DNA of 64,000 nt from Alphaproteobacteria bacterium MarineAlpha11_Bin1. GTDB taxonomy: Bacteria > Pseudomonadota > Alphaproteobacteria > MPNO01 > UBA830. Location: contig PTJZ01000001.1 in assembly GCA_002937455.1 (NCBI GenBank), forward strand, positions 379,605 to 443,604, given 5' to 3'. The translations under genes and the position numbers were made by a program. The notes under the pieces are model-generated. The model was not told the DNA's origin and searched no databases. It saw only the letters and a list, made by a program, of their open reading frames with translations. This document shows positions 2,513 to 62,797 of this stretch, piece after piece. How positions within the stretch are numbered: the first letter of the stretch is position 1; every line of letters starts with the position of its first letter.

Positions 2513-3934
2513 TTATTCCCCAGCGCTGTCACTCAATTCTCGTACGTCTGCGAGGTGACCGGTCACTGCGGCAGCCGCTGCCATAGCTGGACTTACCAAA
2601 TGAGTCCGCCCACCCGGACCCTGTCTACCCTGAAAATTTCGATTCGAGGTAGATGCCGAACGTTCACCTGGCTCCAACATATCTCCATTCATGCCAAGAC
2701 ACATGGAACATCCTGGCTCCCGCCAATCGAAGCCGGCCTCTGTAAAGATCGCATCCAAGCCTTCCGACTCTGCTTGTTCCTTTATGAGACCGGAACCGGG
2801 CACAACCATGGCGTAAACTCCATCCGCCACTTTCCGACCCCTCGCAACCAGAGCGGCCGCGCGGAGGTCCTCAATGCGAGAGTTGGTACATGAACCAATA
2901 AACACCTTGTCAATATGGATGTCAGTCAGCTTCATCCCGGCTTTAATATCCATATAGTCAAGGGCACCTTCGATAGTTTGCCGTTTTGCCTCGTCGTCAA
3001 TATCTGTGGGATTGGGAACCACGCCACCAATCGGTCCAACCATTTCGGGGCTGGTTCCCCAAGAGACGTAAGGCTCGATATCCATGGCGTCCAGCTCGAC
3101 CTCAATATCGTAGCTTGCCCCAAAATCGGATTTAAGCGTCTTCCAGTACTCTACCGCCTGCTCCCACGCGGCGCCCTTAGGGGCCATGGGCCGGCCTTTA
3201 AGATAGTCAAACACCTTCTGATCAGGTGCTACAATGCCTGCACGTGCCCCGGCTTCGATTGACATGTTGCAAACTGTCATACGCCCTTCTACCGACATAT
3301 TTTCGATGACGCTGCCTGCATATTCGATGACGCTACCGGTGCCCCCGGCAGTTCCAATTTTTCCTATGATTGCAAGGATAACGTCTTTAGCAGTCACGCC
3401 GTCACGCAGCTCGCCGTTGACGGTGATCCGCATGTTTTTCGATGGTTTTTGCAAAAGGGTCTGGGTCGCAAGTACATGCTCGACTTCAGAGGTACCGATT
3501 CCGAAAGCCAGTGCCCCCAGTGCACCATGTGTGGCGGTGTGTGAATCGCCACACACCAGTGTCAGACCAGGCTGAGTGAAGCCCTGTTCCGGGCCGATCA
3601 CGTGGACAATTCCCTGACGGACGTCCAAAAAATCTATGAAGGGGAGACCAAATTCCCTCGCATTCTTCTCCAAAAGCTCGATCTGTATGCGGGACTGTTC
3701 ATTCTCTATCCCGTCGGCTCTGCCGGCGGTTGGAACGTTGTGATCCGCAACCAAAAGATGAGCGTCTGGAACCCGAACTGGCCGATTGTTTTCACGCAGG
3801 CCATCAAACGCCTGAGCGCTGGTGATCTCGTGAATAATCTGACGATCAATATACAGAATGCAGGTGCCGTCATCCTTTTCCTCGACCAAGTGAGAGTCCC
3901 AGATCTTGTCGAAAAGTGTTTTTATTTCGGCCAT
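2513..3934 (-). CDS. leuC: 3-isopropylmalate dehydratase large subunit
   Basis: Iron-sulfur subunit of isopropylmalate isomerase, 473 residues, the standard length. Visible cluster ligands are the cysteine in [14 protein letters not shown] and the CxxC of [12 protein letters not shown]. An upstream motif [14 protein letters not shown] matches the aconitase superfamily active site. It follows rplS by 37 bases, so it probably belongs to the rpsP-rplS transcript. Confidence 0.97.
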
Positions 3935-3971
3935 TTTTTACTTTTCACCCCAATCTATTGCAAATAGACGT

Positions 3972-4490
3972 TCAGGATTCTTTCTGCTCGCCGCTGTTAT
4001 TCTCTGCTTCGGCTGGTGCTACGTTCTCCGGCTCAGGAGCGATCTGCTCCATCGCCTCATCCTGCATTTCGACCGCTTCGGCCGCTGTCGCAGGCGCATC
4101 GTTCTTGCTAACAGCCGCAGCTCCAAAGCGTCGATCAACCTTTTCGGCGATCCGCGCCGACTTTCCCCTACGTGATCGTAAGTAATAGAGCTTAGCGCGA
4201 CGGACTGCGCCGCGGCGAACAACCTCGATCTTCTCGATGCGCGGGCTGTAAAGCGGGAAAACCCGTTCCACACCTTCACCATATGAAATCTTACGCACTG
4301 TAAATGAGGAATTCAGCGCCTTAGCGGTTCGAGCAATTACTACACCTTCATAGACTTGAACGCGCTCACGAGTTCCCTCCACCACTTTGTAGTGGACGCG
4401 GACCGTATCTCCGGGGGCGAATTCTGGTACCGGACGCTCGGCAACCAAACGCTCGATTTCTCCCTGTTCAATTTGTTCAATCACGTTCAT
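3972..4490 (-). CDS. rplS: 50S ribosomal protein L19 with acidic tail
   Basis: bL19 lies at the 30S-50S interface. The 172-residue protein starts [15 protein letters not shown] and contains the conserved core [16 protein letters not shown] and [10 protein letters not shown]. The typical bL19 is about 115-125 residues; here roughly 50 extra C-terminal residues are rich in Ala, Glu and Gln. The ATG at 4490 lies inside the last codons of trmD (14-base overlap), which suggests translational coupling. A longer upstream frame is only the reverse reading of trmD. Confidence 0.95.
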
Positions 4491-5839: not shown

Positions 5840-6424
5840 TCAGCCCCCCTTCTTCTCTGCTTCCTCATCGGTCTTCTCGGTCGAGGCCTCTTCAGCCGGA
5901 GCTTCTTCAGCCGGAGCTTCTTCGGCTACAGATTCTTCCGTCGGAGCTTCTTCAGCCGGAGCTTCTTCGGCTACAGATTCTTCCGTCGGAGCTTCTTTGG
6001 CTACAGCTTCCTCCGTCGGAGCTTCTTCAGCCGGAGCTTCTTCAGCCGGAGTATCCTCGACAGAGACATCCGCCTCAGCTTTCGCTTTGGCTAATTCTTC
6101 AGCCTCTCTCATACGTTCCAAAGTCTTGGCGCGCGGTGCACTCTGTTTCGGTGTCTCACGGATTTCCGGCATCGGGATAATCTCAGCTCGGCCGAGAAAC
6201 TTCGCCACGCGGTCAGACGGCTTGGCGCCGACACTGAGCCAGTGCTTGATACGCTTATCGTCGAGCTTAATCCGGTCAGGATGTTCCTGCGGCAGCATCG
6301 GATTGTAAGTGCCGACACGCTCGATATAACGACCGTCGCGCGGCATACGCGAATCCGCAACAACAATACGATAGTAAGGGCGCTTTTTCGCACCCCCTCG
6401 AGATAGTCTGAGTTTAAGCGACAT
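5840..6424 (-). CDS. rpsP: 30S ribosomal protein S16 with repeat-rich acidic tail
   Basis: bS16, an early-assembly 30S protein. The first 80 residues are canonical: [20 protein letters not shown], then [13 protein letters not shown] and the LSVGAKPSD motif. The whole protein is 194 residues against the usual 80-130. The last 90 or so residues are Ala-Glu-Pro repeats of the form [15 protein letters not shown], encoded by tandem 15-base units. The core is certainly S16; the tail is an elaboration of the kind seen in other alphaproteobacteria but unusually repetitive here. Confidence 0.96.
5881..6056. repeat. 15-bp tandem repeats in the 3' end of rpsP
   Basis: Degenerate 15-base units on the plus strand of the type TTCAGCCGGAGCTTC, interspersed with TTCGGCTACAGATTC and TTCCGTCGGAGCTTC variants. 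The composite 45-base block occurs at least twice. The repeat is in frame with rpsP, encoding five-residue E-A-P-A-E-like units, so unit gain or loss would keep the frame. Confidence 0.9.
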
Positions 6425-50340: not shown

Positions 50341-51531
50341 TCAGGAGCGGCAACCTCGCGACCATAAGCGATCGGTCGCGATTGACGCCCCTTCTCCCAT
50401 CGCTCGAAATTTTGACCATACGACCGATTCCGCCACGGGTTGATCCTCACGCGCGAAGGTCCCAAAACCACAATCGGAGCCGGCGATAACCCGCTCTTTA
50501 CCTACGATTTTGGCCCAGTTGCATAGACGCTGAGCTATTAATTTCGGGTGTTCAACGAAGTTCGAAGTAGAATCAATCACTCCTGGAATAAGGATCTTAT
50601 GGTCGGGGATATACAAATCCTGTACGTCTTCCCACTCATGTTCATGTCGAGGATTAGCGCCCTCGAAAAGGATCGCCGACGGTCGAGATGCCATCAGCAC
50701 CGGAAAAATTTTTGCCAGCGGAAAATCGTGTGTGTGGGGGCCTTCATAGTTCCCCCAGCAAATATGAAGGCGCATTTTTTCGGGGGGGATATTGGCGGTA
50801 GCAGCGTTTACCGCCTCCATATTACGCCAGGCGATCATAAGAAATTCTTCATCTGATAGGTGTTTGTATTGATTGTGGCGGGCGGATCCGAGATCAGGAC
50901 AGTCTATCTGCAAAATTAACCCCGCGGCATGAATGGCCTCATACTCGGTCTGCATGGCACTTGTCATTGCCTCAATATAGGCGTCTTCATTCTTGTAGTA
51001 GTCGTCTGGTACAAACTTGCTTAGGACGCCCGGTGATGCTGCGGTCATGAAGGCTTCGACCGGGGAGGTCTCATCCATCGCACCTCTGAGATTTGCGATA
51101 TCACGTTCCAGAGGCTCTCGATTTTCATACTCGACAGGACCAACAACCCAAGGCCGGCCAAACGAAAGTGCCCAGCCGCTCCGCTCTCGCGCAACGCGAT
51201 CAGCAAAATCTGGGTGGTCCAGAATATCTTGGTTCGCCCCTTCGCGCGGCGGTTCGGCACCTGGCGGTTGGGCTGGATCGATATTGGATAACCGGTGTCT
51301 AACATAGAAGGTATAGGAAATCTTTCCCATATCTCCGTCCGAAACACTGTCGATCCCGGAGGAAACCTGCTTCGCTACCGCATCACGAACTGCATCAGCG
51401 GTACGAACTCTCAGCTTTGCCGCATCATGCGATTCGCCTCGTTCCTCCGCAATCAGCAAATCATAAAGATCTAACGGTCGCGGTAGACTACCGACATGGG
51501 TTGTAAGAATTCTATCGGTGCTAATTTTCAT
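50341..51531 (-). CDS. MetE-like cobalamin-independent methyltransferase domain protein (copy 3)
   Basis: 396 residues, the longest of the three. RILTTHVGSLPRPLDLYDLL opens the barrel; RLHICWGNYEGPHTHD and VIAGSDCGFGTFARED hold the zinc-binding His and Cys residues. The extra length is an insertion after the first strand. Its role is unknown. It is the last host gene before the integrated element. Confidence 0.86.
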   Translation of the reverse strand: MKISTDRILTTHVGSLPRPLDLYDLLIAEERGESHDAAKLRVRTADAVRDAVAKQVSSGIDSVSDGDMGKISYTFYVRHRLSNIDPAQPPGAEPPREGANQDILDHPDFADRVARERSGWALSFGRPWVVGPVEYENREPLERDIANLRGAMDETSPVEAFMTAASPGVLSKFVPDDYYKNEDAYIEAMTSAMQTEYEAIHAAGLILQIDCPDLGSARHNQYKHLSDEEFLMIAWRNMEAVNAATANIPPEKMRLHICWGNYEGPHTHDFPLAKIFPVLMASRPSAILFEGANPRHEHEWEDVQDLYIPDHKILIPGVIDSTSNFVEHPKLIAQRLCNWAKIVGKERVIAGSDCGFGTFAREDQPVAESVVWSKFRAMGEGASIATDRLWSRGCRS

Positions 51532-51599: not shown

Positions 51600-51645
51600 T
51601 GGTGCCGCCTGCGTGACTCGAACACGCGACCCCCGCATTACGAAT
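51600..51645 (-). pseudogene. Host tRNA-Thr(CGU), 3' half cut off by integration (left attachment site)
   Basis: On the minus strand this reads from the anticodon loop (ATTCGTAAT) through the T arm GCGTG-TTCGAGT-CACGC to the acceptor AGGCGGC, discriminator A and CCA. Its acceptor strand pairs perfectly with GCCGCCT of the 5' half at 60913-60951. The two together make a regular 76-nt tRNA with anticodon CGU. The last nine bases (51637-51645) are the attachment core. Confidence 0.9.
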
Positions 51646-52058: not shown

Positions 52059-52110
52059 GGAACACCCTTTAGAACTCATCTCTGGACGATGTAGGGGGGA
52101 GAAAAGTGGT
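52059..52110. repeat. 52-bp direct repeat, copy 1
   Basis: Matches 52994-53045 with one mismatch (T/G near base 10). It starts GGAACACCCT and ends GGGGAGAAAAGTGGT. Here it is not followed by tRNA sequence; copy 2 runs directly into the middle tRNA 3' half. Confidence 0.9.
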
Positions 52111-52221
52111 TGGTTAGTTCAAACCAGTCCTATGTCTTTCTCTACGTAGGCACCGGATAGAAACCTCCTTGTCAACCTACCCTTACGGTGACATCCTTCA
52201 TCCAACGAACAGGAGATGCAG

Positions 52222-52920
52222 ATGTTCAGAACGGGGGTGTTGACGTTAACCATAATGCTCTTCGGAATGACTACGCATGCAAAAGACCAACCGATTAATG
52301 AAGTGCGTTATTTTGGAGGGTTTGAGGAACCAAGGTGTAAGGGACAGGAAGGACTCTCGAAGATACCCGAGTCTTGGCGAGACTGCTCATACATTGGGTC
52401 CCTTAGGACGATGACAACAAGGGTGACCTGGTGGGGATCACTGAACTCAAAAGGCAACATGCACGGGACGCAAACATCGGACCATCAAGCATTGGACCAT
52501 AAGTTTTTCAAGCGTTGTGTGAGAACTTTTGAAGATGGAAAGATGCAGGGATGGGAAATATGCAGAGGTAAGGACGGATCTGGTCTCGCGAATGGACCCG
52601 TTATCTCCAAGAAATTTTATGTTAATGGCAAACACTCCCCTGAAAAAGAGGTGGAAATTCAAAAAACATCTTATCGAACTGAATGCAAAGAAATTGGATT
52701 CTCTCCAAAGACCGAGAAATTTGCAGAATGTATCCTTCGTTTGATGGAGTTGAAGGGGTATTCAAATAAAGAGATTGTCACGAAAAATAATAGATCTGAG
52801 ACACCGGATGCTGTTCGTTCTTTGGTGGATGAAACAAAACGGCAAAATGACATCACAAATGCAATTGAGTTGATGAATCGGAGTCTGAAAATGATGGAAT
52901 TGCCCGTTTCCAAACAATGA
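52222..52920 (+). CDS. Exported protein of unknown function
   Basis: 232 residues with an N-terminal signal peptide (MFRTGVLTLTIMLFGMTTHA, then KDQ). The mature part has paired cysteines, and the segment CKEIGFSPKTEKFAECILRL is a C-x4-GF-x-P-x-T-x2-FA-x-C arrangement I have seen in short exported proteins of marine alphaproteobacteria; no function is known to me. I chose the ATG at 52222, six bases after AGGAG. It lies between the two 52-bp repeats. Confidence 0.7.
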   Translation: MFRTGVLTLTIMLFGMTTHAKDQPINEVRYFGGFEEPRCKGQEGLSKIPESWRDCSYIGSLRTMTTRVTWWGSLNSKGNMHGTQTSDHQALDHKFFKRCVRTFEDGKMQGWEICRGKDGSGLANGPVISKKFYVNGKHSPEKEVEIQKTSYRTECKEIGFSPKTEKFAECILRLMELKGYSNKEIVTKNNRSETPDAVRSLVDETKRQNDITNAIELMNRSLKMMELPVSKQ

Positions 52921-52993: not shown

Positions 52994-53045
52994 GGAACAC
53001 CCTGTAGAACTCATCTCTGGACGATGTAGGGGGGAGAAAAGTGGT
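52994..53045. repeat. 52-bp direct repeat, copy 2
   Basis: Second copy of the repeat at 52059. Its last bases overlap the CCA end of the middle tRNA 3' half, so the repeat is the sequence naturally lying just downstream of that tRNA fragment. Confidence 0.9.
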
Positions 53046-53087
53046 GCCGCATGGGTGACTCGAACACCCGACCCCAGCATTACGAAT
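53042..53087 (-). pseudogene. Middle tRNA-Thr 3' half (internal attachment site)
   Basis: Minus strand reads core ATTCGTAAT, T arm GGGTG-TTCGAGT-CACCC, acceptor ATGCGGC and ACCA. It is 46 nt, the same size as the host 3' half at 51600 but a different sequence. Joined to the host 5' half it would form a tRNA with mismatches at C6-U67 and C28-U42, so it looks like an old element-supplied replacement 3' end later cut off by a second integration. The core is at 53079-53087. Confidence 0.8.
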
Positions 53088-54341: not shown

Positions 54342-54887
54342 TCAACTCGCCTCCAAAGCACGATATACGCTTGCTCTGCTTATCCCTAATTCACGGGATA
54401 TCTTTGTGGGCTTAAATCCCTGAGCCGCCAGTTCCTTAATTTTGCTCTGATCGATCTTAGGTGGACGACCTTTATAGACGCCTTTCTCTTTAGCTTTGGC
54501 GATCCCTTCGAGTTGGCGTTCCCGTCTGAGGTTCGTTTCGAATTCCGCAAACACACCCAACATATCGAGGAAGCACTTTCCGGCGCTTGTTGTCGTGTCG
54601 ATGGGTTGTTCCGTGGCTTTAAGCTCGACGCCTCTTTCCCTCAAGTCTCGGACAATCGTTTGAAGGTCGAGAACCGAGCGACCCAACCTATCAACACGGG
54701 TAACGACGAGCTCGTCGCCTGATCTTAAGAATTCTAAGAGCGTTTTAAGCTCGTCTCTTCCGTTCACCGAAGAACCGGAAACCTTCTCGCTTCGGATTAT
54801 CTCGCAACCCGCATTTTTAAGAGCTTCTTTCTGGACCGTTAGATCCTGATCCGTCGTCGAAACTCTCGCATATCCATAAACCGTCAT
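54342..54887 (-). CDS. Serine recombinase (resolvase/invertase family)
   Basis: 181 residues. YGYARVSTTDQDL contains the catalytic Ser10; GDELVVTRVDRLGRSVLDLQ and FAEFETNLRRERQLEGI are the conserved arginine-bearing segments. The C-terminal KISRELGISRASVYRAL is a Hin-type helix-turn-helix. GGAGGG lies four bases upstream of the ATG at 54887. It could resolve element multimers or invert DNA. Confidence 0.93.
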   Translation of the reverse strand: MTVYGYARVSTTDQDLTVQKEALKNAGCEIIRSEKVSGSSVNGRDELKTLLEFLRSGDELVVTRVDRLGRSVLDLQTIVRDLRERGVELKATEQPIDTTTSAGKCFLDMLGVFAEFETNLRRERQLEGIAKAKEKGVYKGRPPKIDQSKIKELAAQGFKPTKISRELGISRASVYRALEAS

Positions 54888-54901
54888 AAGACCCTCCAAA
54901 A

Positions 54902-59221: not shown

Positions 59222-59252
59222 AAAAAGAAACCCCAAAACCTAAATTCTGGGG
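59222..59252 (-). terminator. Terminator of the intron-containing tRNA
   Basis: On the minus strand CCCCA/TGGGG with a 12-base loop followed by TTTCTTTTT, starting 14 bases after the tRNA CCA end. This supports active transcription of the tRNA. Confidence 0.8.
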
Positions 59253-59265
59253 CTTCAATAAAAAG

Positions 59266-59553
59266 TGGTGCCGCGTGGGTGACTTGAACACCCGACCCCC
59301 GCATTCATCACACTACGACTTTCGTCGCCACCCTGTTGGGCTTTGTGCGCTGGACTTTCTCTTCACCATACTAACCGTCGGTTAGATTAGGCGCTCACCG
59401 TCAAGTCTCTACACCTTCTCCGCTCGGAGCTTGGCTCGGGATTGCCATTTCACAGGTTTCCCCGACTTTGATGAGTTTTCATCTCAAGGTTTCCCAAGAG
59501 AGACGCAATTTAAAACTACGAATGCGATGCTCTACCAACTGAGCTAACGCGGC
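59266..59553 (-). tRNA. tRNA-Thr(CGU) interrupted by a group I intron
   Basis: 5' exon 59553-59518 (36 nt, GCCGCGTTAGCTC through anticodon CGU) and 3' exon 59305-59266 (40 nt, ending CCA). Spliced, it makes a regular 76-nt tRNA: acceptor GCCGCGT/ACGCGGC, D stem GCTC/GAGC, anticodon stem TCGCA/TGCGG, T stem GGGTG/CACCC. CCA is encoded. It starts 22 bases after the integrase stop on the same strand and may be transcribed with it. It differs from the split host gene at paired positions in compensating ways, so it is an independent functional gene. Confidence 0.92.
59306..59517 (-). ncRNA. Group I intron (Azoarcus tRNA-Ile type, IC3-like) in tRNA-Thr
   Basis: 212 nt, inserted directly after anticodon position 36. 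Core elements on the minus strand: guide triplet GCG (59506-59504) pairing with anticodon CGU, including a U-G wobble at the splice site; AATCCCGAGCCAAGC (59443-59429); GGTGTAGAGACTTGACGG (59415-59398); AAAGTCC (59358-59352); a GAAA-capped P9 hairpin (59327-59316); terminal G at 59306. Two other GGGAAACC/GGGGAAACC segments resemble its tetraloop and P-domain parts. P7 would pair GACUU with AAGUC, versus GACUA/UAGUC in Azoarcus as I recall it. No open reading frame inside. Confidence 0.9.
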
Positions 59554-59575: not shown

Positions 59576-60793
59576 TTATGTTGCTAGAAAGTCAAAAATG
59601 TTTTCCACCTTTGAGCGGTTCGAAGACTTAGTTAGTTCACTCGCCTGTCGGAGGTTGCTCGTATGCCCGTAAAACTTTTCGATCATTTCGACTGACGTTC
59701 CCATATTTTGGGCGAGTACATAGTGATCCACACCCTCATAAAGCCGAAAGGTCGCATAGGTATGGCGAAGCGAATAAATGGTTCGCTTATTTCCTTCCCT
59801 ATCAAATTCAACGTCGCAATATTTGAGTAAGGAAGCGAACGACTTTTTGAACGATCCGATAGCTTTTCCGTTTGGGTGACAGAATATGAGGCTATCCTGG
59901 GGTGGTTTTGAACCGAGCTCTTCCGTGCGTATTTTAAGTATACGTTGGAGGTAGGTTTGAACTTCCGAGGTTCGCGCGACGACTTCACGGAGCCCTGTTT
60001 TGCCCTTAACTCGAAAGGCAAAGTTCGTCTCGTCTCTATCGTTCGTTTTAAATGGGCGAACGTCTCGCCATTCCAAATCTCTAGCCTCGCCCACTCGGAT
60101 ACCCGTGTTTGATAGGATCAGAATATAATTCCAAAGTAAGGCGCGGTCTCTGCGAACTGACGGGTGCTTGTGTTCTTCTAACCAGTATCGAGCGTATCGA
60201 GTTAGCTTTTTGTAATCGACCTCATCGAACACAGGGCGCGGATTATCTTTGATCGACGGCTTAGTAAAACTTGGTATCTCTCGGATAAACTTTCTGTCTT
60301 TCGCCCACTTTAAAAATCTCGATATTTCCCCGCCTTCGGCGTTCAGGGTATTTTCCGATAATTGTCTGCCTCTGTATTTCTGACTGCGGCGGTGCGTGAA
60401 ATAGTCTTCGATCAGTTTTGTGTCTATCGCCCCGATAGTCTTTTTTCCTAAAAAGGAACGAAAGTGATCTCCAATCTTTTTTTGCGTATTGGAGAACCGA
60501 GATTTATGGCTCTGAGAGTGAAGGTACTCATCAATCACTTTAGAAGCGGATTTACTTTTTACCTCCTCCCCTGCCCGAGCCCGAAATCTTAAATCTTCGT
60601 ACAGATCTATCGCACGTCTGTAGGCTTCGTCTCTATCTTCGGTTTTGAGTGACTTGACGATATAGCCTGAACCCAACGGCGTTCTGATGCGGCTCTGGTA
60701 GACAGGTTTCTTCCCAGCACTACGCACGTAAATCGTTACGTCGCCGTTGTGAAAGCTCTCTAGATCTTGGTACGTTTTTGTGTCGTTATCCAT
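59576..60793 (-). CDS. Tyrosine-type site-specific integrase
   Basis: 405 residues. N-terminal arm-binding and SAM-like regions, then catalytic R233 (SNTGIRVGEARDLEW), K265 (RVKGKTGLRE), R343 in YSLRHTYATF and nucleophile Y375 in MIEKFYGHT. The usual first histidine of HxxR is Tyr and the later His is Thr (NMGTS), a variant common in alphaproteobacterial element integrases. It lies at the right end, reading away from the host tRNA 5' half, as expected for the enzyme that uses this attachment site. Confidence 0.95.
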   Translation of the reverse strand: MDNDTKTYQDLESFHNGDVTIYVRSAGKKPVYQSRIRTPLGSGYIVKSLKTEDRDEAYRRAIDLYEDLRFRARAGEEVKSKSASKVIDEYLHSQSHKSRFSNTQKKIGDHFRSFLGKKTIGAIDTKLIEDYFTHRRSQKYRGRQLSENTLNAEGGEISRFLKWAKDRKFIREIPSFTKPSIKDNPRPVFDEVDYKKLTRYARYWLEEHKHPSVRRDRALLWNYILILSNTGIRVGEARDLEWRDVRPFKTNDRDETNFAFRVKGKTGLREVVARTSEVQTYLQRILKIRTEELGSKPPQDSLIFCHPNGKAIGSFKKSFASLLKYCDVEFDREGNKRTIYSLRHTYATFRLYEGVDHYVLAQNMGTSVEMIEKFYGHTSNLRQASELTKSSNRSKVENIFDFLAT

Positions 60794-60912: not shown

Positions 60913-60951
60913 ATTACGAATGCGATGCTCTACCAACTGAGCTAAGGCGGC
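60913..60951 (-). pseudogene. Host tRNA-Thr(CGU), 5' half cut off by integration (right attachment site)
   Basis: Minus strand reads GCCGCCT, D arm GCTC-AGTTGGTA-GAGC, then the anticodon stem and loop ending ATTCGTAAT. It is 39 nt, identical to the element's tRNA 5' exon apart from base 6, and it pairs with the 3' half at 51600. The core is at 60913-60921. After the core the sequence is AT-rich element DNA with no tRNA 3' half, so this copy cannot make a tRNA. Confidence 0.9.
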
Positions 60952-61381: not shown

Positions 61382-62797
61382 CTATCCCCTCGATCCTATA
61401 TCCGGTTTATTAGTGACCGTAGCGATATCTCGCACCACTGACGCCGGATTAACAACATCTTCCTCAAGCACCAACGGCACCTCAGCATCCCCCAGCGCCC
61501 GCGGACGGGCCGGTGATCCCCACCCTATGGTCCCGAGAGTACGACAACTTCCACAGACAGGCCTCCAATCATACCAGGTCGACCCGCATTCGCTACAGGT
61601 CCACGCTGGATCCGGCGGGGCAGCCGCTGCTCTCCGCAACCACGACCCGGCATTTTCTGGATTTTCCCCCGACCGCTCCTCTAGATCTGCCATCATTCTG
61701 CACACGCGCGATGGTGGATCGGTTCCCGCTGCTTTTTTAAGATGCGTGCGAGCCTCTCCCCAGAGCCCTGCTTCGAGAGCCGATTGCGCCAGCGCGATAT
61801 GACTTTCGGGATGGTCAGGATTGAACGAGAGGAGGCGTTCGTAGCGTTTAACGATTTTGAGTTGGTCCTCACCGGCTATACCGATTTCGCCATAGATCCG
61901 AGCGAGTACCGGGTGCGGCGTGTACGCCCAAGCATTTTGAATGATACGGGCAGCGTGGCCCGTTTTGCCGTTCCTTACCATTAGGTCAACAGTACGCAAT
62001 GCAGCGGGCAGAAATTCTGGGGTCAGCGTATTTCCTTGCCGCGCGAAGCGAAGTGCTTCTGGCAAATCGCCATTATCTTCCGCCTCGAGGCTGCAACCGA
62101 GTAATACCGTCGTCCGGCGGACACGGGCAGTGTCAGCTGGCAGTAATCTTCGCTTCACAGTTTCTTCCAAAGTGGTCAACGCGGCGCGCCAACGACCCTC
62201 AGCAACTTGAAGATCAAACATTGTCGTCAAGACCCAGGGTGTCTTGGGCTGCAGTTCATAAGCCCTTTCGGCGTATTGAAGTGCTGCATAACGGTCATTT
62301 TTCTTCTGCGCTTGGATAAGTAAACCGCGGACACCGAGAAAAGCAGTTTCGGGCCGATCGAGCATATTCTTGAAGTACCGCGCTGCGGCAGCCTCGTCGC
62401 CATTTAGTTGCGCCGCCTGCGCCGAGAGCAACATTGTAAGTGGCGGTTCGTTCAACAGGATATCTGCCCGCCGCGCCTGTCGATTAGCTTCTCCCGGATC
62501 GCCTGCTGCGACGGCGACCATACCATGGGTCAATGCTCGGTACCCGCGCTCTCGACGAGAGGCCCGATGCCATTCCCGAAGACGCCGTGGGGTTCTACCG
62601 AGCGCCCGGACTATGCCAACAATAAAGACCAGAACAAACAGTAGAAACGCAGTGGCCAAGACAAACCGACCTACCGTTAATTCGACCAGCCAACCCTGCC
62701 ATACAATCGATACCATTCCTGGTCGGTCACTAAACCAAACCGCCGCAGCAACAATGCCCGCTAAAGAAACAATCATACACAAGGTAAAACGGATCAT
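61382..62797 (-). CDS. HemY-like inner-membrane TPR protein
   Basis: 471 residues. Two N-terminal membrane spans (MIRFTLCMIVSLAGIVAAAV and VLATAFLLFVLVFIVGIVRA) precede the HemY_N segment GRTPRRLREWHRASRRERGY, followed by TPR helices to about residue 390. A C-terminal CxxC pair (WTCSECGSTWYDWRPVCGSC) looks like a small zinc ribbon. HemY-like proteins accompany haem genes, but their role is unclear. It starts two bases after the mitofilin stop. Confidence 0.92.
   Translation of the reverse strand: MIRFTLCMIVSLAGIVAAAVWFSDRPGMVSIVWQGWLVELTVGRFVLATAFLLFVLVFIVGIVRALGRTPRRLREWHRASRRERGYRALTHGMVAVAAGDPGEANRQARRADILLNEPPLTMLLSAQAAQLNGDEAAAARYFKNMLDRPETAFLGVRGLLIQAQKKNDRYAALQYAERAYELQPKTPWVLTTMFDLQVAEGRWRAALTTLEETVKRRLLPADTARVRRTTVLLGCSLEAEDNGDLPEALRFARQGNTLTPEFLPAALRTVDLMVRNGKTGHAARIIQNAWAYTPHPVLARIYGEIGIAGEDQLKIVKRYERLLSFNPDHPESHIALAQSALEAGLWGEARTHLKKAAGTDPPSRVCRMMADLEERSGENPENAGSWLRRAAAAPPDPAWTCSECGSTWYDWRPVCGSCRTLGTIGWGSPARPRALGDAEVPLVLEEDVVNPASVVRDIATVTNKPDIGSRG

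What the first reader, a model, noticed from the sequence alone, without database searches (positions are those of the whole stretch)
59266..59553. A tRNA-Thr(CGU) gene carries a compact group I intron whose guide matches this anticodon
Seen: two exons form a perfect 76-nt tRNA-Thr(CGU), split after the anticodon by 212 nt with group I core elements nearly identical in order and sequence to the Azoarcus tRNA-Ile(CAU) ribozyme. The internal guide is GCG, pairing with CGU, whereas Azoarcus uses GUG with CAU. P7 also shows a compensating pair change. Known bacterial tRNA introns of this class are in tRNA-Leu, -fMet, -Arg(CCU) and -Ile(CAU); I do not recall one in tRNA-Thr(CGU). This looks like an intron adapted to a new tRNA, on a mobile element.
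Basis: partly seen in the sequence, partly recalled or inferred. Interest (0 to 1): 0.93.

Follow-up and report, generated by a model that had tools for sequence, protein, structure and literature searches.

The report
Intron-shielded replacement tRNA on an integrating element
In an alphaproteobacterial chromosome a likely mobile element has cut the host's threonine tRNA gene in two and carries a complete spare copy interrupted by a predicted self-splicing intron, which probably hides the spare from the element's own integrase; the same layout recurs with leucine tRNA, so it may explain how these introns spread and what they are for.

Summary
In detail: a 76-nt tRNA-Thr(CGU) is split after position 36 by a 212-nt group I intron (RF00028, above gathering score). 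The larger finding lies around it. The host's own tRNA-Thr(CGU) is cut in the anticodon loop. Its 5' half (60951-60913) and 3' half (51645-51600) flank a 9.3-kb, lower-GC region with a tyrosine integrase and overlap only by the 9-bp core ATTCGTAAT. Rejoined, they give a tRNA identical to intact genes in five other genomes. The intron-bearing gene starts 22 bp after the integrase, pairs with itself rather than with either half, and so looks like a replacement. Its intron interrupts the core that the integrase presumably recognises. The order host 5' half, integrase, intron-bearing tRNA recurs in a second tRNA-Thr(CGU) element and in tRNA-Leu(UAA) elements with another integrase lineage; host 3' halves were found 20-28 kb away in three of these. 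Among integrases found without regard to introns, 5 of 9 with a complete tRNA just downstream have the intron there, against 0 of 41 with a complete tRNA upstream. Splicing, recombination and the shielding role are untested, and intronless replacements also exist.

The parts
59266..59553 (-). Replacement tRNA-Thr(CGU) gene with group I intron: exon 1 59518-59553, intron 59306-59517 (212 nt, between tRNA positions 36 and 37), exon 2 59266-59305
   Evidence: ARAGORN on spliced exons; RF00028 53.1 bits; covariation
60913..60951 (-). 5' half (nt 1-39) of the host's own tRNA-Thr(CGU), ending in the core ATTCGTAAT (attL-like)
   Evidence: blastn of the spliced tRNA against the window; sequence; rejoining
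51600..51645 (-). 3' half (nt 31-76) of the host's own tRNA-Thr(CGU), beginning with the core ATTCGTAAT (attR-like)
   Evidence: rejoined with the 5' half gives a 76-nt tRNA-Thr(cgt), acceptor stem 7/7
53042..53087 (-). Third, orphan 3' half (nt 31-76) with a different acceptor strand (ATGCGGC); read as what is left of an earlier replacement tRNA hit by a later integration
   Evidence: the relic reading is inference
59576..60793 (-). Tyrosine recombinase (integrase), 405 aa, ending 22 bp before the replacement tRNA
   Evidence: PF00589 E 3.1e-9 and PF13102; homologues and alignment A1
59227..59256 (-). Terminator-like hairpin just after the replacement tRNA
   Evidence: 1 found, 0.6 expected in shuffles, so weak
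54342..54899 (-). Serine resolvase inside the inserted region; a homologue (41% over 193 aa) sits in the related 2.3-kb element of L025
   Evidence: PF00239; tblastn
61382..62797 (-). hemY-like gene, host flank on the 5' side of the split tRNA
   Evidence: PF07219; hemY homologue within 1.5 kb of intronless tRNA-Thr(CGU) in 16 of 30 relatives
50341..51531 (-). Methionine-synthase-like gene, host flank on the 3' side of the split tRNA
   Evidence: PF01717

Best explanation
A likely integrative element has split the host's tRNA-Thr(CGU) gene at its anticodon loop and carries, right behind its integrase gene, a complete replacement tRNA-Thr(CGU) whose predicted self-splicing group I intron interrupts the presumed integrase core site, so that the replacement would supply the tRNA while being hidden from further integration. 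Shown by sequence: both halves of the host gene at the two ends of the region, the shared 9-bp core ATTCGTAAT, the self-contained replacement gene, and the intron splitting that core. Inferred: that the integrase uses this core; that the intron splices and gives a working tRNA; that separating the two half-sites by 212 bp blocks recombination. Unlike classical tRNA islands, neither end of the window's insert regenerates the tRNA, so the host would come to depend on the element's copy. The same layout in other elements suggests that bacterial tRNA group I introns spread partly as the shield of such replacement-tRNA cassettes.
For: Split host gene: the halves at 60951-60913 and 51645-51600 overlap by exactly ATTCGTAAT and rejoin to a 76-nt tRNA-Thr(cgt), 100% identical to intact genes in 5 of 385 genomes searched. 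A hemY homologue lies within 1.5 kb of intronless tRNA-Thr(CGU) in 16 of the 30 best-matching relatives, which marks the native locus. Replacement: in the window acceptor stems pair 7/7 host5 x host3 and 6/7 in both cross pairings, in G106 7/7 against 5/7; the gene starts 22 bp after the integrase. Recurrence: L011 (host 5' half, integrase, intron-bearing tRNA-Thr(CGU)) and tRNA-Leu(UAA) in G004, G015, G106 and G389. Host 3' halves were found in G106, G004 and G015, about 20, 24 and 28 kb from the 5' halves, and rejoin to tRNA-Leu(taa). The core is interrupted in 5 of 5 intron-bearing replacements tested and intact in the 1 intronless one tested. Association: integrases found without regard to introns, complete tRNA within about 105 bp downstream, intron in 5 of 9; complete tRNA upstream, intron in 0 of 41 (one of the 9 placed by eye; Fisher 6e-5). 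From the intron side, integrase directly upstream in 5 of 28 intron-bearing tRNA genes against 0 of 57 intronless ones (p 0.003). A tree that holds the integrases of window, L025 and L011 together is rejected at AU p 0.0265, though the intron-tRNA genes of window and L011 are 85% identical, as if the cassette moves between integrases.
Against: 4 of the 9 integrase-found downstream tRNAs have no intron (L009, L025, L040, L493), so the intron is not needed for the layout. 23 of 28 intron-bearing tRNA genes of the survey have no integrase directly upstream. Of 47 intron-bearing tRNAs on viral contigs, 3 have a weak integrase match at 3.7 kb and 44 none in the stretch held. Truncated 5' halves upstream are not clearly commoner with introns: 5 of 28 against 3 of 57, p 0.11. 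The Leu integrases are one clade, so the counts are not independent. Group I introns in tRNAs sit in the anticodon loop anyway, so overlap with an anticodon-loop core could be a by-product. In G004 one cross pairing of acceptor strands also reaches 7/7 with a G.T pair. In G015 the host 5' half runs on, just after the core, into a T-arm and CCA-like tail, perhaps a defective regenerated tRNA, though ARAGORN calls none there. In L025 the two host halves pair 4/7 by my own count. L040 shows no host half. No sigma-70-like promoter was seen before the window's replacement tRNA.
Confidence: 0.64

Rival explanations
1. Replacement without shielding: elements of this kind carry a spare tRNA because they destroy the host's. 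The group I intron came along by descent or by chance because it lives in anticodon loops anyway, and has no effect on integration.
For: Intronless replacement tRNAs exist in the same layout (L009, L025, L040, L493). 23 of 28 intron-bearing tRNA genes have no integrase directly upstream, and those on viral contigs show no close integrase.
Against: The intron is in 5 of 9 downstream tRNAs but in 0 of 41 upstream tRNAs of related integrases, in at least two integrase lineages and two tRNA families. The intronless replacement of L025 keeps the full core.
Confidence: 0.25
2. Classical tRNA island, misread: the element brought a 5' tRNA part that regenerated the gene with the host's 3' part, and later rearrangements made it look like several copies.
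For: Islands with a displaced 5' fragment are on record (159 of 3919 in Islander; passages of PMC4383910). The window holds an extra 3' half at 53042, and in G015 the host 5' half is followed by a tRNA-tail-like stretch.
Against: The host halves pair with each other better than with the intron gene in the window (7 against 6) and in G106 (7 against 5; G004 does not tell them apart). No complete 5' half precedes the host 3' halves of window, G106, G004 and G015. A crossover in the core would not leave an intron in the middle of the core.
Confidence: 0.07
3. Intron delivery by attP: the element's own attachment site contains the intron and passes it to the host tRNA during integration, as proposed for archaea by Sugahara et al. 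2012.
For: The idea is described in a passage of PMC8371274; element and intron do travel together here.
Against: Both cores in the window, 60913-60921 and 51637-51645, are intron-free, and the intron sits in a separate complete gene inside the insert.
Confidence: 0.03

Closest known systems
Group I introns of bacterial tRNA genes (Rfam RF00028; Azoarcus tRNA-Ile(CAU), Agrobacterium tRNA-Arg(CCU), cyanobacterial tRNA-Leu(UAA) and -fMet; partly recalled, partly from passages)
   Same: Covariance-model match, anticodon-loop position, guide that fits the 5' exon, terminal G, no reading frame of its own
   Different: The tRNA is Thr(CGU), and it looks like a replacement gene on an integrase-bearing element rather than the host's own gene
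tRNA-targeting genomic islands with tyrosine integrases (Islander; passages of PMC4383910)
   Same: Tyrosine integrase, apparent crossover in the anticodon loop, tRNA pieces at both ends
   Different: There the island's fragment regenerates the target; in the window both ends stay broken and a full separate tRNA gene is carried inside
Archaeal tRNA introns and split tRNAs as protection from integration (Randau and Soell 2008, not held; read through passages of PMC4090602 and PMC4033280)
   Same: An intron in the anticodon loop breaks up an integration site
   Different: Bacterial, a group I ribozyme rather than an endonuclease-spliced intron, and carried by the element itself in its replacement tRNA
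Caldiarchaeum 1.8-kb recombinase insertion between a tRNA fragment and a tRNA gene; intron-bearing attP (Sugahara et al. 2012; known to me only through passages)
   Same: A tRNA fragment and a tRNA gene with a recombinase gene between them
   Different: Archaeal; proposed as intron delivery through attP, while here the attachment cores are intron-free

Membership tests
Group I intron (RF00028) | Covariance-model match above the curated score | tested here: met
   Window 53.1 bits against 50. Of 7 related loci, 6 match at 34.5-69.1 bits (L112 and L431 above gathering, L082, L094, L107, L438 below) and L111 has no match at E 0.01; L001-L003 have none at gathering
Group I intron (RF00028) | Guide pairing with the 5' exon ending in U.G, and terminal G | tested here: met
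   GCG with CGU, last base G; weak alone, see the control
Group I intron (RF00028) | Conserved core helices supported by compensatory changes | tested here: met
   26 of 51 pairs with a change on both sides; P7, in a pseudoknot with P3, is not in this fold
Group I intron (RF00028) | Self-splicing | not testable with these tools
   No RNA data; needs in vitro transcription or RNA-seq
tRNA-targeting genomic island (Islander type) | Tyrosine integrase | tested here: met
   PF00589
tRNA-targeting genomic island (Islander type) | Direct repeat of a tRNA segment at both ends | tested here: met
   ATTCGTAAT at 60913-60921 and 51637-51645
tRNA-targeting genomic island (Islander type) | The island's tRNA fragment regenerates the target gene at one end | tested here: not met
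   Both host halves in the window are lone fragments; the complete gene is internal and self-paired
Intron as protection from integration (archaeal proposal) | Intron lies inside the integration core | tested here: met
   Core absent from 5 of 5 intron-bearing replacement genes, present in the 1 intronless one tested
Intron as protection from integration (archaeal proposal) | Intron prevents recombination | not testable with these tools
   Needs a recombination assay

The most novel reading that the evidence does not exclude
There is an unrecognised class of bacterial integrative elements that break an anticodon-loop target and do not repair it, but bring their own tRNA armoured with a group I ribozyme against their own and rival integrases. 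The ribozyme is the element's self-immunity device, the host becomes dependent on the element's tRNA, and this traffic is a main route by which bacterial tRNA group I introns without homing genes have moved between tRNAs and species. The lone 3' half at 53042 would be the trace of an earlier replacement tRNA destroyed by a rival.
Probability: 0.48. Interest if true: 0.93.

Novelty: new variant of a known kind. Interest (0 to 1): 0.86.

Why it matters
The stated rule for tRNA-targeting islands is that the target gene is regenerated on integration. Here it is broken at both ends and replaced, which would tie the host to the element. It gives group I tRNA introns a possible job and a vehicle, and makes the archaeal idea that tRNA introns guard against integration testable in bacteria with one integrase, one 76-bp site and one 288-bp site. 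Because common tRNA finders miss these genes, such islands are easily overlooked and a host can look as if it lacked a tRNA.

Tried and rejected
Viral contigs: the integrase alignment found no relatives. The gapped pattern was far too loose, so its loci (L133-L212 are listed) were ignored.

Considered and dropped: the intron as a homing element with its own gene (212 nt leave no room for one); a defence island (10 of 10 cargo ORFs tested without PADLOC match); ARAGORN's call of the unspliced gene, with introns allowed, as tRNA-Ile. The first splicing script gave ambiguous calls and the second crashed; the routine was used. Loci it could not splice to a clear tRNA (L096, L099, L100, L102, L438) were assigned by eye. 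The script's 3/7 acceptor pairs for G015 come from a wrong trim at an inner GCCA; by eye GGCCCCA and TGGGGCC pair 7/7. L025 was trimmed wrongly as well; by eye 4/7. My notebook says 17 of 30 for hemY; the recount is 16.

Limits of the surveys: in the class searches with DNA only two candidates per genome were scored, so counts of introns are lower bounds and absences are soft. The control genes are the 30 best matches of each, of 182 and 42 genomes with a match. Of the 78 integrase loci (the best 80 of 418 matching stretches), 35 have a complete tRNA upstream, 4 one just downstream, and 39 neither within 700 bp. Displaced fragments of the 41 upstream tRNAs were not looked for.

Not followed up: Polynucleobacter L079, where the order of tRNA-Ile(CAU) halves, integrases and intron copies is more tangled. 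No phylogeny of the introns was built. Integrase and cargo were not folded.

Full report
WHAT IS THERE. Exons 59553-59518 and 59305-59266 splice to a 76-nt tRNA-Thr(CGU). The 212-nt intron between them is the only Rfam hit of the window at or above gathering score, RF00028 at 53.1 bits. The guide GCG fits CGU and the last intron base is G. A control with exons of other anticodons shows that a 3-nt guide match is weak evidence alone: 25 of 25 for own exons, 114 of 175 for others. Six related introns support the fold with changes on both sides at 26 of 51 pairs. ARAGORN without introns sees no tRNA in the window.

THE HOST GENE IS SPLIT. A blast of the spliced tRNA against the window shows, besides the intron-bearing gene, a 5' half at 60951-60913, a 3' half at 51645-51600, and a third 3' half matched at 53102-53042. 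The 5' half ends and the 3' half begins with ATTCGTAAT, the seven-base anticodon loop with one base on each side. Joined at that core they make a tRNA-Thr(cgt) of 76 nt. The joined sequence is 100% identical to intact genes in 5 of 385 alphaproteobacterial genomes (G070, G381, G312, G305, G110). The 5' half lies 430 bp behind a hemY-like gene. A hemY homologue lies within 1.5 kb of the intronless tRNA-Thr(CGU) in 16 of the 30 best-matching relatives and about 1.6 kb from the 5' half in L011 and L025. So the native locus is hemY with tRNA-Thr(CGU), and 9.3 kb appear to have been inserted into the anticodon loop. The insert has 40-47% GC in 1-kb windows against 46-54% for the flanks. It carries a tyrosine integrase next to the 5' half, a serine resolvase, a small DnaJ-domain protein and several ORFs without a Pfam or PADLOC match.

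THE INTRON-BEARING GENE LOOKS LIKE A REPLACEMENT. It starts 22 bp after the integrase and ends 6.2 and 7.6 kb before the lone 3' halves. Its acceptor stem pairs 7/7 (by its score), the two host halves pair 7/7 with each other, and both cross pairings give 6/7. Neither end of the insert regenerates the host gene, unlike the rule stated for tRNA islands in Islander (passages of PMC4383910) and in a review of tyrosine recombinases (passages of PMC8371274). The intron splits the core between positions 36 and 37. That review describes the anticodon loop with its flanking palindromic stem as matching the overlap region and core of an integrase site; here the stem arms GCATT and AATGC are moved 212 bp apart.

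THE LAYOUT RECURS. A scan of GTDB genomes with the integrase alignment gave 78 loci, the best of 418 matching stretches. In 35 a complete tRNA lies upstream of the integrase, the classical form. In four (L009 Arg, L011 Thr-CGU, L025 Thr-CGU, L040 Thr-UGU) a complete tRNA lies 6-72 bp after the end of the match, and three of these four have a host tRNA 5' half upstream. The other 39 have neither within 700 bp. L011 has the intron, 85% identical to the window over all 288 nt; the other three have none. L025 is a small element of 2.3 kb with host 5' half, integrase, intronless replacement, resolvase and 3' half; its integrase reading frame is in two pieces, and its host halves pair only 4/7 by eye.

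SURVEY FROM THE INTRON SIDE. The window gene and an intron-bearing tRNA-Leu were searched in 385 genomes drawn from the class, two candidates scored per genome. They gave 28 distinct intron-bearing tRNA genes without G001, which had been picked for its integrase. Five, all tRNA-Leu(UAA), have an integrase directly upstream: G389 70 bp, G015 59 bp, G120 27 bp (partial integrase), G106 66 bp, and G331 about 105 bp, read by eye, with a frameshifted integrase on a contig that ends inside the intron. Of 57 intronless tRNA genes from the same draw with at least 1.4 kb upstream (27 Thr-CGU, 27 Leu-UAA, 3 other Leu) none has one within 200 bp. Fisher p is 0.003, or 0.007 for Leu alone, 5 of 18 against 0 of 27. 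Truncated 5' halves upstream: 5 of 28 against 3 of 57, p 0.11. A further case, G004 (Sphingobium lactosutens, 55 bp), came from a genome chosen for another integrase. Host 5' halves precede the integrase in G389, G015, G106 and G004; in G015 it runs on into a T-arm and CCA-like tail. Host 3' halves were found downstream in G106 (about 20 kb from the 5' half), G004 (24 kb) and G015 (28 kb). Rejoined, all three are tRNA-Leu(taa) for ARAGORN with acceptor stems 7/7 (G015 recounted by eye). Cross pairing with the replacement is worse in G106 (5/7) but reaches 7/7 one way in G004. No second 3' half was seen in G389 up to its contig end.

SURVEY FROM THE INTEGRASE SIDE. The G106 integrase found 13 relatives in 11 of the 385 genomes at E 1e-90. 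Five have a tRNA directly downstream: four tRNA-Leu(UAA) with the intron (one cut off by the contig end) and one intronless tRNA-Leu(UAG) beside what I read as an inverted tRNA-Leu 3' piece. Six have a complete tRNA upstream, one of them with a second tRNA-Met and a decayed intron further downstream. Two show neither. Together that makes introns in 5 of 9 downstream tRNAs and 0 of 41 upstream tRNAs (intron profile over the loci; Fisher 6e-5). Displaced fragments of the 41 were not checked. Six Leu integrases form one clade with full support, apart from window plus L025 and from L011, which groups with integrases beside tRNA-Thr(GGU). A tree holding window, L025 and L011 together is rejected at p 0.0265; the group was named after the tree was seen, so this is soft. 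Rows of one clade are not independent, which weakens the p values.

OTHER TRACES. tRNA-Thr(CGU) introns in G130 and G234 lie away from hemY. There is no tRNA-Thr within 1.5 kb of hemY in these genomes, and neither is among the genomes with an intronless match; both absences are soft, because L011 shows a 1.6-kb spacing and only two candidates per genome were scored. If they hold, the intron copy is the only tRNA-Thr(CGU) there. G398 gave no hemY match. G130 keeps a decayed 5' half 202 bp upstream of its intron copy. In Polynucleobacter AP-Latsch-80-C2 two lone tRNA-Ile(CAU) 5' halves, integrases, two intact intron copies, two degenerate ones and a lone 3' half lie on two contigs. The third 3' half in the window (53042) differs from the host's in its acceptor strand, and part of its 3' flank recurs near 52108. 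I read it as the rest of an earlier element's replacement tRNA that was itself hit; this is inference.

MECHANISM AND LIMITS. Best reading: integration splits the host tRNA, the cassette supplies the tRNA, and the intron keeps the cassette from being a target for the same or rival integrases, while splicing restores the RNA. Shown: anatomy, cores, interruption, recurrence. Not shown: splicing, tRNA function, integrase specificity, effect of the intron on recombination. Against a strict need for the shield stand four intronless replacements, 23 of 28 introns without an adjacent integrase, and 47 viral-contig introns without the layout.

WHERE IT COMES FROM. The Ffh protein of the window has near-identical copies (100%) in contigs of Tara and other collections, and hits named Alphaproteobacteria or Pseudomonadota, so the window is from an uncultured, probably marine alphaproteobacterium.

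PRINT. Ten paper searches, seen as listings, showed no bacterial tRNA-Thr(CGU) group I intron and no bacterial replacement tRNA shielded by an intron; most subscription papers are not in that library. The idea that tRNA introns guard against integration is Randau and Soell's for archaea, read through passages of PMC4090602 and PMC4033280. Passages of tRNAscan-SE 2.0 (PMC8450103) say the program was not designed to detect group I introns and name tRNA-fMet and tRNA-Ile2 cases. Passages of PMC5733544 report cyanobacterial tRNA-Arg, -Gly and -Lys cases. A term search of a paper on integration into Sinorhizobium tRNA genes (PMC11476347) found no mention of introns.

Noticed in passing
L003 (Escherichia coli plasmid CP142574.1), about 3885-4183: An intron-bearing tRNA-Leu(UAA) gene lies near aminoglycoside resistance genes; sequence similar to part of the window's intron gene matched 1,272 plasmid records, 485 of them Escherichia and 357 Klebsiella.
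   Followed up: no
L001 (Tritonibacter mobilis megaplasmid NZ_CP015231.1), 5920-6247: tRNA-Thr(UGU) with a 252-nt group I intron on a plasmid, no integrase match in the 12 kb held.
   Followed up: partly
L118, L384, L387, L386: Group I introns in tRNA-Thr(GGU), tRNA-Lys(CUU) (between positions 35 and 36) and tRNA-Lys(UUU).
   Followed up: partly
L079/L129/L131 (Polynucleobacter AP-Latsch-80-C2): Array of lone tRNA-Ile(CAU) 5' halves, intact and degenerate intron copies, integrases and a lone 3' half on two contigs.
   Followed up: partly
L488, about 0.7 kb after the integrase: Decayed tRNA-Leu intron and 3' exon behind an integrase that has tRNA-Met(CAT) on both sides, perhaps an old element overlaid by a new one.
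   Followed up: no
L374 10380-10414: An inverted 5' piece of tRNA-Arg(CCU) lies 0.4 kb after the start of an intron-bearing tRNA-Arg(CCU).
   Followed up: no
window 52216-52920 and repeats at about 53054 and 52108: ORF of 234 aa without Pfam or PADLOC match, flanked by a repeated stretch of about 50 bp.
   Followed up: no
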